NCBI GenBank assembly: GCA_001606155.1 | Contig: LODT01000049.1 | Location: 54,841 to 118,840 of the forward strand | Direction: 5' to 3' | Source of the DNA: Tieghemostelium lacteum | Taxonomy: Eukaryota > Evosea > Eumycetozoa > Dictyosteliales > Raperosteliaceae | Length of the DNA: 64,000 nt | Shown: positions 60,950-64,000 of the stretch, in pieces | Position numbering within the stretch: position 1 is the stretch's first letter | Layout: each line of letters starts with the position of its first letter | Notes under the pieces: model-generated | What the model saw: only the letters and a program-made list of their open reading frames with translations | The model's database searches: none | What the model was told of the DNA's origin: nothing | Made by a program: the position numbers and the translations under genes

Positions 60950-61395
60950 CTAAAGGGTAAAAAGTCCATTGTTTTTGGGACTTTGAGTGATTTGGTATTT
61001 CTAGATTCTTTTTCATTAGAACTATCATTAGGCTAATTCATCTTCAGTTTCCTATGGCATATCATTTTCAGATTCTCTCAATTTCTTGTTTTTGAGTTCA
61101 TGGTTAACCATTACAGAACTATCTCTACAGAGTTACTAACAAATGGAAGTTTGAGTAGTTCAGTTGAGGTCTTTCTATTATTTGGATCCTTTTTTTAGAC
61201 AACTAATAATTTAAGATACAAGTTCCTTTGAATAACTATCTTGATTTTTAAGTTTTGGTGGATCTCTATAGATATCTGAAAGAGTACTTTCATTGGGTGA
61301 ATTGTTCTGCTTCTGCCAATTCAATTAATGTAATACCTAATGACCATATATCTGCTTTTGTATCATATGACACAGGATTACTTCTATTCTCTATT
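60950..61395 (-). pseudogene. Decayed STE20-type protein kinase, C-lobe fragment
   Basis: The minus strand reads SYDTKADIWSLGITLIELAE (subdomain IX of STE20/PAK kinases). After frameshifts it gives pieces matching SDIYRDPPKLKN, then SCLKKDPNNRKTSTELLKLP (subdomain XI), followed by an acidic tail. At least two frameshifts are needed. It belongs with the N-lobe fragment at 62105-62400, from which it is separated by a different protein's remnant. Confidence 0.7.
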
Positions 61396-62101
61396 AGTTC
61401 TTTCATCTTCATCTTCATCTTCATCTTCTTCCTCTTCGACCTGTTTAGAAGGTTTAACAAGAATACCATGTTTACCCAACTTTATAATTCTCTTTGCCTG
61501 AGGTCTCTCTTCTTTAATAAGAGATGGATGATTGTATATAGTTGAATAAGTAGATATAATAGTTTCACAATCCCATTATCTAATTCATTCTATTGTTGTG
61601 CTTCTTCAACCTGCACCAATATCCTTTGATCAATTTCTAGCAATAATCTGTTTCTTTTCTTCTTCAGTCAGTGGAATGATTGCATTAGATTTCTTTAAAT
61701 TCTCCAATTGAGTCATCAAAGGTAAATGATTATCATTGTAATTATCTAGAAATTCATCGAAAACATCTTCAAATTTTTCAGTTGAAAATTGACCCTGGGT
61801 TTCTTCATAATCCAATTCACCAATTTCCTCTTCTTGGTACTGTTCCAGAGCCTTTTGGAATAGGAAATCCATAATTTCGTCCACCACTCTATTTTGTTTC
61901 TAAATCTATAGGTCTACCATCCTCATTGTAACCATCATCACCCAAAGCCTGAATCAAATCAGTATCTACATTTAATTTCTCTAGTTCTTTTTTATTTTTT
62001 ACGTAATGTTGACTAATCTCCTCTAGACCAAAACCTACAGGTGCTGGTTGAGAAGTAACAAAATTCAATATACCACCCTTATGTTTCTTTAGTTCATTCA
62101 T
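61380..62101 (-). pseudogene. LTV1-like gene remnant lying between the two kinase fragments
   Basis: Two adjoining minus-strand frames, 62101-61889 (GFGLEEISQHYVKNKKELEK, then VDTDLIQALGDDGYNED) and 61887-61630 (FQKALEQYQEEEIGELDYEE, then EDVFDEFLDNYNDNHLPLM), then a further piece (PQAKRIIKLGKHGILVKPSK) near 61440-61500. The order and spacing follow LTV1, a 40S ribosomal subunit assembly/export factor: an 'L-D-x-D-I-x-A-L' segment, then 'F-x-x-x-x-x-Q-Y-x-x-x-E-I-G-x-L', then a basic C-terminal motif. Two frame changes and missing N- and C-terminal parts make it a non-functional fragment. Assignment is from family knowledge without a search. Confidence 0.55.
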
Positions 62102-62104
62102 ATC

Positions 62105-62400
62105 ATACCAATAAAAGTATTTTGATTGTTTATCTAAATGACCACTGGCACCAAAATCAGCAAATTTTACATCACCCCGATCATAATTAAAATATTTTCA
62201 CCTTTTAAATCTCTATGAATAACATGATTACTAGGTAAATATTCTAAACCTTTTAATGTTTCACGACAAACATGCTATTTGTGCCTCTTTTAAAGGTACA
62301 ACTAATTCCTCAGGAATATATATATTTCTGTAATTGATCCTCCTTCTTAACATTCCATTGCAATTTAGAATGATGATACTCGGTATTAATATTTCATCAC
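62105..62400 (-). pseudogene. Decayed STE20-type protein kinase, catalytic-loop fragment
   Basis: The minus strand encodes, across frames, [14 protein letters not shown], then [13 protein letters not shown] (subdomain VIB), then [20 protein letters not shown] (subdomain VII). The frame changes twice. The glycine loop and subdomains I-V are largely missing. It stops at the boundary with the LTV1-like fragment near 62101. Confidence 0.75.
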
Positions 62401-62568
62401 TATTCCTATTCCTATAAAAAAAAAAATGAAAAAAAAAAAAATTGCTGATCGATTTAAACCAAACGAATATTTTGATTTATTATTACAACGATTATTATTG
62501 TTGAAATTTGAAAAAAATAAAAATTACCAAAAAAAGAAATTTTACAAATTGAGTTTTGTTGATGCTTC

Positions 62569-62930
62569 TTAAAACTCTTTATGTAAATTGAGAGTGGAAA
62601 TTGTTTCCATAAGTAGAGAACCTCTTGAACTTGTAAAAATATCATAAAATGATTTAAATTTTCTCTCTAGGAATACTTGTGAGCTTGGAGAGGATAAATA
62701 CGATCTTTCTTGTAATGCAAGACTTAGATAATCACCATATTTTGATTTCCAGTATTGGTTGACATTGACATCAGAGGCAGGTTCAGGCAGGTACTTAGAG
62801 ATTTCCGAAGTTGAGTGTGGATTGTGATGATTAATTCTTTGGAAACCTTTGGATGGTGAAGCTGATTGTAATGTATTACTTGGACATATGGGCAGCCAAA
62901 GCTTTTTATAGTAGACCAACTGACTTATAT
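62569..62930 (-). pseudogene. Unknown ORF fragment abutting the satellite
   Basis: A minus-strand frame ending at 62569 runs upstream without an ATG into the satellite boundary near 62930. It contains LQSASPSKGFQRINHHNPHS, YLPEPASDVNVNQYWKSKYG and ERKFKSFYDIFTSSRGSLL. The texture is coding, and the 5' end appears cut off by the repeat array. No family was recognised. Confidence 0.4.
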
Positions 62931-62931
62931 T

Positions 62932-63785
62932 GTTTTTGAAGGTTTTTGAAGGTTAATGGTAGTAATTGAAGGTTAATGAAGGTTATTGAAGGTTGATTAG
63001 TGTTATTGAAGGTTAATGAAGGTTATTGAAGGTTAATGATAGTTATTGAAGGTTAATGAAGGTTAATGAGGTTAATGAAGGTTGTTGAAGGTTAATGAAG
63101 GTTAATGAAGGTTATTGAAGGTTATTGAGGGTTATTGAAGGTTATTGAAGGTTATTGAAGGTTATTGAAGGTTATTGAAGGTTATTGAAGGTTATTGAAG
63201 GTTGATGAGTGTTATTGAAGGTTAATGAAGGTTAATGGGGGTTATTGAAGGTTATTGAATGTTATTGAAGGTTAATGAAGTTTGTTGAAGGTTGATGAAG
63301 GTTGATGAATGTTGATGAAGGTTGATGAAGGTTAATGAAGGTTGTTGAAGGTTAATGAAGGTTAATGAAGGTTAATGAAGGTTAATGAAGGTTAATTGAA
63401 GGTTAATTGAAGGTTGATGAAGGTTAATTGAAGGTTGATGAAGGTTAATTGAAGGTTATTGAATGTTATTGAAGGTTAATGAAGTTTGTTGAAGGTTGAT
63501 GAATGTTGATGAAGGTTGATGAAGGTTAATGAAGGTTGTTGAAGGTTAATGAAGGTTATTGAAGGTTGATGAGTGTTATTGAAGGTTGAAGAGTGTTATT
63601 GAGGGTTAATGAAGGTTATTGAAGGTTGTTGAAGGTTGATGAAGGTTGATGAAGGTTGATGAAGGTTGATGAAGGTTATTGAAGGTTATTAAAGGTTAAT
63701 TGAATGTCGTTTTAAGGTTAATGAAGGTTTTTTGAGGTTATTGATGGTTATTGGTTTATTGGAAGGTTGTTGAAGGTTTATTGAT
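62932..63785. repeat. Subtelomeric satellite, 10-bp unit GAAGGTTATT and variants
   Basis: Roughly 80 tandem copies of GAAGGTT(A/G)(A/T)T with a 10-bp period. Short runs of an 11-bp variant (GAAGGTTAATT) occur around 63391-63450, with variants GAATGTTATT and GAGGGTTATT. The + strand contains no C from 62925 to 63707. Copies degrade toward 63785. Confidence 0.95.
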
Positions 63786-63849
63786 GGCATTCTAATCAGG
63801 TCTGGGTAATGGAATCTAATTTCGCTGTGGGTAGGTTAGTGAAGGATAG
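63786..63849. other. Transition between satellite and telomere repeats
   Basis: Unique-looking sequence (GCATTCTAATCAGGTCTGGG and on) with no ORF. It ends in degenerate GGTTAGTGAAGGATAGGTTT. Confidence 0.6.
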
Positions 63850-64000
63850 GTTTAGGAGGGTAGGGTAGGGTAGGGTAGGGTTAGGGTAGGGTAGGGGTAG
63901 GGTAGGGTAGGGTAGGGTAGGGTAGGGTAGGGTAGGGTAGGGTAGGGTAGGGTAGGGTAGGGTAGGGTAGGGTAGGGTAGGGTAGGGTAGGGTAGGGGTA
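63850..64000 (+). repeat. Telomeric repeat array, TAGGG pentanucleotide
   Basis: About 28 tandem TAGGG units to the window end, with occasional TTAGGG (about 63881) and TAGGGG variants. The G-rich strand is the + strand running 5' to 3' outward, the polarity of a right-hand chromosome end. Confidence 0.93.

What the first reader, a model, noticed from the sequence alone, without database searches (positions are those of the whole stretch)
63850..64000. Chromosome end with a 5-base TAGGG telomere repeat
The terminal array is TAGGG, one T shorter than the common TTAGGG, with rare TTAGGG and TAGGGG units mixed in. The G-rich strand points outward and the window stops inside it, so this is very probably a true telomere. 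A pentamer implies a shortened telomerase RNA template. It also differs from D. discoideum, whose chromosome ends carry rDNA-related sequence (established knowledge).
Basis: partly seen in the sequence, partly recalled or inferred. Interest (0 to 1): 0.8.

Follow-up and report, generated by a model that had tools for sequence, protein, structure and literature searches.

The report
Slime-mould telomere with five-base TAGGG repeat
The window ends in a real chromosome end of the social amoeba Tieghemostelium lacteum, capped by a five-base version (TAGGG) of the usual six-base telomere repeat, which matters because it may mark a step on the way to the very odd chromosome ends of its relative Dictyostelium discoideum.

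Summary
Confirmed and widened. The window's last base is the last base of contig C39. TAGGG arrays cap 18 of 86 contig ends, always with the G-rich strand outward; all 286 (TAGGG)4 words in the genome lie within 196 bp of those ends, none inside a chromosome. Units: 352 of 377 are exactly TAGGG. The arrays abut two telomere-adjacent sequence families (A: 12 ends; B: 7 ends including this one) and, at many ends, a 10-bp G-rich minisatellite. This window's end is a hybrid: A-type subtelomere and minisatellite joined to a B-type boundary of about 55 bp. One TERT gene is present with its catalytic motifs, without the poly-asparagine insert reported for D. discoideum. The telomerase RNA was not identified (two unproven leads), so the "shortened template" remains inference. 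The genome paper already says this species has normal eukaryote chromosome telomeres (passages seen; its supplementary figure not), and TAGGG telomeres occur in Giardia and a fungus. So this is a true but not unprecedented telomere; the interest lies in the dictyostelid series TTAGGG, TAAGGG, TAGGG, A(G)n.

The parts
63861..64000 (+). Terminal TAGGG telomere array, G-rich strand running 5' to 3' outward to the contig end
   Evidence: contig length 118840
63806..63860 (+). Telomere-adjacent boundary block of type B, about 55 nt, with degenerate telomere-like units; matches ends C7L (85.0%) and C30L (86.2%)
62932..63784 (+). Subtelomeric 10-bp minisatellite (GTTATTGAAG, 84.8 copies), G-rich strand outward; one C in 853 nt
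61883..63208 (+). Subtelomeric segment 91% identical over 1.35 kb to the right end of contig C2; includes remnants of open frames and the start of the minisatellite

Best explanation
This is a natural chromosome end of Tieghemostelium lacteum. The cap is a TAGGG telomere made by telomerase: the TERT encoded on contig C42 copies an RNA template of about one and a half CCCUA units (inferred, not identified) onto the 3' end of the G-rich strand. Inside the cap lie two families of telomere-adjacent sequence and a 10-bp minisatellite, which are spread and mixed between ends by recombination. Shown here: terminal position, orientation, exclusivity, composition, the subtelomere families and a full-length-looking TERT frame with its catalytic motifs. 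Inferred: telomerase activity, the template, the 3' overhang and G-quadruplex or shelterin-like capping.
For: 18 of 86 contig ends carry (TAGGG)4 or longer; 178+108 = 286 genome-wide words, all at these ends. All G-rich outward. Contig C2 has arrays at both ends. Arrays are nearly homogeneous (352 of 377 units) although their neighbours differ between family A and B, as expected of a templated cap. TERT: one PF12009 match in the genome; a 931-aa frame with PF12009 and PF00078 above cut-off; 3.8e-37 to a solved telomerase reverse transcriptase (7qxa_A, human as I recall) over residues 226-898, with the catalytic aspartates of motifs A and C and the GIPQGS motif aligned; identical over its whole length to record DLAC_00648 of T. 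lacteum, named telomerase reverse transcriptase in UniRef. Longest Asn run is 5, at residue 192, before the RNA-binding domain. The genome paper states normal eukaryote chromosome telomeres for this species (passage).
Against: No telomerase RNA identified; in every template or promoter-coupled search the true pattern was rarer than its reversed control (for example 29 against 71, 21 against 150), so there is no enrichment to speak of. Assembled arrays are short (36-196 nt), so true length is unknown. 68 of 86 contig ends lack an array; 6 of the 68 stop in subtelomeric sequence and the rest look like assembly breaks. Within families A and B the array starts at nearly the same base, which shows that whole end blocks are copied between ends, so recombination contributes.
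Confidence: 0.9

Rival explanations
1. The TAGGG tracts are real chromosome ends but are kept mainly by recombination between ends (ALT- or HAATI-like), as proposed for D. discoideum tert mutants, with telomerase minor or inactive.
For: Telomere-adjacent sequences are 96% identical on average among 12 A ends, and the array follows directly on CTGAGGG in 9 of the 11 A ends that have an array (C31R has one extra G, C12L differs); the window's end is an A/B hybrid; D. discoideum terthp mutants survive (PMC6759168, abstract and part 1 of the discussion).
Against: Variants are few (25 of 377 units, 9 of them from the ragged end of C17), and the TERT frame has its catalytic motifs. Recombination alone does not predict the same homogeneous array at both A and B ends.
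Confidence: 0.08
2. Assembly or contamination artefact: a simple repeat that happens to sit at contig ends because assemblers stop in repeats.
For: Many other contig ends stop in simple repeats such as ATT/AAT; the assembly is draft data with gaps closed by primer walking (passage).
Against: Arrays are always in one orientation relative to the end and abut two conserved sequence families; no (TAGGG)4 word is internal, while the AT-rich microsatellites occur in both orientations at ends (by eye).
Confidence: 0.02

Closest known systems
TTAGGG-type telomerase-made telomeres (vertebrates; Dictyostelium fasciculatum by a passage of PMC6759168)
   Same: Short G-rich tandem repeat at chromosome ends, G-strand outward, TERT gene present
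   Different: Unit is five bases, one T shorter; telomerase RNA unknown here
Giardia TAGGG telomeres (passages of PMC10999387, PMC7046594)
   Same: Same unit TAGGG with rare variants, TERT present
   Different: Unrelated lineage, so presumably independent origin; Giardia variants reported are TAAGG and TAAGGG, here mainly TAGGGG and TTAGGG
Peltaster fructicola (fungus) TAGGG telomeres (passage of PMC10100673)
   Same: Same pentamer, described there as less T-rich
   Different: Fungus; presumably an independent change
Dictyostelium discoideum chromosome ends: rDNA palindrome ends with irregular A(G)1-8 repeats (PMC6759168)
   Same: Another dictyostelid; G-rich 3' strand at the end; TERT homologue present
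   Different: Here regular TAGGG, no rRNA genes detected at the ends examined, no long poly-Asn insert in the RT domain of TERT
Polysphondylium pallidum TAAGGG telomeres (passage of PMC6759168)
   Same: Dictyostelid with a regular short repeat
   Different: Hexamer with A in place of the second T of TTAGGG, rather than a missing T

Membership tests
Telomerase-maintained short-repeat telomere | Tandem short G-rich repeat located only at chromosome ends | tested here: met
   286 of 286 (TAGGG)4 words at 18 contig ends
Telomerase-maintained short-repeat telomere | G-rich strand runs 5' to 3' towards the end | tested here: met
   18 of 18 ends
Telomerase-maintained short-repeat telomere | TERT with RNA-binding domain and RT motifs | tested here: met
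   the TEN domain was not tested apart
Telomerase-maintained short-repeat telomere | Telomerase RNA with a complementary template (CCCTA permutation) | tested here: inconclusive
Telomerase-maintained short-repeat telomere | Physical end: BAL-31 sensitivity, 3' overhang, telomerase activity | not testable with these tools
   needs cells
D. discoideum-type rDNA-derived chromosome ends | Irregular A(G)1-8 terminal repeats | tested here: not met
   352 of 377 units are TAGGG
D. discoideum-type rDNA-derived chromosome ends | rDNA sequence next to the ends | tested here: inconclusive
   No Rfam match at gathering score in the window; in 20 end loci from 13 small contigs only two tRNAs, no rRNA; the other end loci were not scanned, and the palindrome spacer and end sequences themselves were not available for comparison

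The most novel reading that the evidence does not exclude
T. lacteum is a surviving intermediate in a stepwise loss of T from the telomerase template within dictyostelids: TTAGGG (group 1), TAGGG (group 3), then A(G)n in D. discoideum (group 4). On this reading D. discoideum's odd ends are the end point of ordinary telomerase template erosion, not a replacement of telomerase by rDNA, and the T. lacteum telomerase RNA would be the key to finding the unknown D. discoideum one. The best lead for that RNA is C2:860370-860547 (+): a promoter-like motif, then a perfect 7-bp hairpin, then an unpaired CCUACCCU five bases later, the layout of a template with its boundary helix.
Probability: 0.3. Interest if true: 0.6.

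Novelty: new member of a known kind. Interest (0 to 1): 0.4.

Why it matters
It fixes the telomere unit, its orientation, its exclusivity and the subtelomere layout of a dictyostelid that (as I recall the phylogeny) is closer to D. discoideum than the TTAGGG and TAAGGG species, and so narrows where in the family the canonical telomere was lost. A regular pentamer plus a TERT with its catalytic motifs makes the hunt for an amoebozoan telomerase RNA concrete: it should contain a CCCUA permutation of about 7-10 nt. I met no amoebozoan telomerase RNA in the paper listings, and the review PMC12133305 uses the word Amoebozoa once, for Entamoeba as a possible loss (passage).

Tried and rejected
Telomerase RNA by template: 29 places of CTACCCTAC with a non-C base before it (reversed control 71). 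24 of 29 lie in frames open over at least 60 of the 120 codons fetched, 23 of these over the whole stretch; L127 reads as a coding exon after an intron by eye. L116, L119, L122 and L129 look non-coding. In L116 the template is largely paired in the predicted fold. L119 and L129 lie, by eye, just upstream of a gene on the other strand; L119 has a loose promoter-like match 89 nt upstream, but it spans the start codon of that gene by eye. L122 is followed by a T run but has no promoter-like match in 281 bases upstream. None is convincing. Rfam at E up to 5 on L116, L119, L122, L129 and L130 gave no telomerase family.

Telomerase RNA by promoter: the promoter motif DUSE was read from four U2 genes of this genome (AACCTTAA in three, TCCCATAA in one; 52 nt from motif end to U2 start in the one that I counted) and coupled to 6-base template cores at spacings of 70-130 and 130-190 nt (21 hits, 44: 12, 45: 25, 46: 15) and to the 8-base core CTACCCTA with a shorter motif (7, 67: 5). 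Reversed controls were always higher (150, 83, 156, 110, 42 and 33). Of the 73 hits I read the flank of 20; C30:307794-307968 is one site found by two searches, so the hits are fewer than 73 places. It proved to lie, as a 9-base match, in the last exon of a gene on the other strand. Of the other 19 flanks one, C2:860370-860534, reaches an 8-base match (CCTACCCT); I had overlooked it at first and found it on rechecking. It has a perfect 7-bp hairpin ending 5 nt before the match; 66 of 3000 random window sites have as much. Against it: on the other strand an ATG frame begins about 45 bases beyond the match, so the region may be a 5' leader. C21:470794-470890 is the second lead; its printed part folds with the template partly paired. 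The remaining hits were judged only by the up to 80 bases printed, or not at all (the last hit and all five showed no letters). Templates in other phases at 9 bases, shorter than 8 bases, or further from the promoter were not covered.

Not pursued: TERT structure prediction, POT1 and TRF-like proteins, phylogeny (the protein search returned only the query's own record).

Full report
Observation. The last 140 bases of the window are a tandem TAGGG array: 24 TAGGG, one TTAGGG and two TAGGGG units, followed by TA. Its longest perfect run is 20 copies, against 1 or 2 in 200 order-1 Markov simulations of the window. The window is G000:C39:54841-118840 and the contig is 118,840 bases long, so the sequence stops because the contig stops.

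Organism. The genome has 23,333,832 bases in 43 contigs. Its TERT protein is identical to the T. lacteum record DLAC_00648, whose contig length, 1,401,370, equals that of C42. The published T. lacteum (D. lacteum) assembly is 23.4 Mb in 54 contigs (PMC4931340, passages).

Census of ends. I examined all 86 contig ends: 4 kb of the 43 left ends and of 17 right ends, 400 bp of 25 right ends, and the window for C39 right. 18 of 86 ends carry at least one (TAGGG)4 word. All 286 such words in the genome (178 forward, 108 reverse) lie at these 18 ends, at most 196 bp from the contig end; none is internal and none points inward. Shorter or more degenerate internal runs were not counted. Contig C2 (1.47 Mb) has arrays at both ends. 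Of 377 units counted from the first (TAGGG)3, the last unit of each array left out, 352 are TAGGG, 7 TAGGGG, 5 TAGG, 4 TTAGGG and 9 others; 9 of the 25 variants come from the ragged end of C17.

Subtelomeres. The 150 bases inside the arrays fall into two families. Family A is at 12 ends (at one, C4 left, the contig stops at the boundary), with mean pairwise identity of 96%; family B is at 7 ends, 81% with the window's divergent copy included. The array follows CTGAGGG in 9 of the 11 A ends with an array, and GTGGG in 5 of the 7 B ends. Both families end in short degenerate telomere-like units such as TAGG, TTAGG and TTTAGG. By a strict 27-base word, a 10-bp minisatellite lies further inward at 16 ends: 11 of the 18 with an array and 5 without. 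The 7 array ends without the word are C7L, C8L, C17R, C30L (4 kb read) and C23R, C27R, C31R (400 bp read). All 216 reverse-strand words of the genome lie at left ends, and 81 of 151 forward words at the right ends read; the other 70 are unplaced, since only 400 bp of 25 right ends were read. At all 16 ends its G-rich strand points outward. Six contig ends without an array stop in subtelomeric sequence (C4 left, C10 right, C11 right, C16 left, C19 left, C29 left; C11 by only one 10-mer and by eye). That makes about 24 candidate chromosome ends, compatible with 12 chromosomes if no end is counted twice (inference).

The window's end is a hybrid. 1.35 kb (window 61883-63208) is 91% identical to the right end of C2, a family A end, and the minisatellite follows; but the last 55 bases or so before the array match family B. 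The simplest reading is an exchange between two end types (inference).

Telomerase. The genome has one PF12009 match. The 931-residue frame carries PF12009 and PF00078 above their cut-offs and aligns to a solved TERT (7qxa, human as I recall) over residues 226-898 at 3.8e-37, with motifs A (LDIQKCYD, residue 592), B' (GIPQGS, 711) and C (FIDDY, 751) in place. The D. [quoted passage not shown] here the longest Asn run is 5, at residue 192, before the RNA-binding domain.

Telomerase RNA. None is known in D. discoideum according to PMC6759168. I searched for a template outside arrays, alone and coupled to the dictyostelid promoter motif DUSE (PMC7919456, passages), whose local form I read from four U2 genes. 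The patterns are not enriched over their reversed controls, and no candidate is established. Two leads remain. C2:860370-860547 (+) has a DUSE-like motif, a perfect 7-bp hairpin and, 5 nt later, an unpaired CCTACCCT; 66 of 3000 random window sites have such a hairpin, and an ATG frame on the other strand offers a plain alternative. C21:470794-470890 (RNA on the minus strand) has CTACCCTA about 83 nt after a motif. The shortened template is therefore inferred from the product only.

Comparison. PMC6759168 gives TTAGGG for D. fasciculatum, TAAGGG for P. pallidum and A(G)n for D. discoideum (abstract, passages and discussion part 1). PMC4931340 says of this species that it has normal eukaryote chromosome telomeres and D. 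discoideum-like A/T-rich ends on the rDNA palindrome (passages); its supplementary figure could not be read, so the unit may be in print there. In the held library a search for TAGGG with telomere and Dictyostelium found three papers, and lacteum with telomere and Dictyostelium two. I read passages of one of each: PMC7046594 and PMC4931340. Neither gives this unit for this species in the passages seen; the other three I saw only in the listing. TAGGG telomeres are known in Giardia (PMC10999387, PMC7046594, passages) and in the fungus Peltaster fructicola (PMC10100673, passages).

Judgement. The finding is right and the feature is ordinary in kind: a telomerase-type telomere with a rare unit. 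It gains interest from its place in the family. If group 3 is sister to group 4 (recalled), the order TTAGGG, TAGGG, A(G)n looks like stepwise loss of T from the template; four species with one sequence each cannot prove this, and P. pallidum's TAAGGG does not fit a simple loss.

Noticed in passing
window 62932-63784: 10-bp minisatellite with one C in 853 bases; the same repeat marks 16 contig ends of the genome by a strict word, always with the G-rich strand outward.
   Followed up: yes
window 61290-62200, minus strand: Broken open frames that look like protein kinase remnants by eye; one of three pieces matches Pfam kinase models below their cut-offs. Partly inside the subtelomeric segment shared with contig C2.
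   Followed up: partly
G000: 12 family A ends and 7 family B ends: Two distinct families of telomere-adjacent sequence in one genome, with the array starting at nearly the same base within each family.
   Followed up: yes
L097, L098, L099, L100: Four U2 snRNA genes with the DUSE promoter motif, AACCTTAA in three and TCCCATAA in one; one scores 93 bits and three 65-67.
   Followed up: partly
G000:C2:860370-860547, plus strand: Lead for a telomerase RNA: DUSE-like motif, perfect 7-bp hairpin, 5 nt, then CCTACCCT.
   Followed up: partly
G000:C21:470794-470890, minus strand: Non-coding-looking CTACCCTA site about 83 nt after a DUSE-like motif; second lead for a telomerase RNA.
   Followed up: partly
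contig ends C7R, C26R, C27L, C35L: These contig ends stop in what looks by eye like one shared repeat (ACATCACCAGT-CACTGC type), probably one repeat family breaking the assembly.
   Followed up: no
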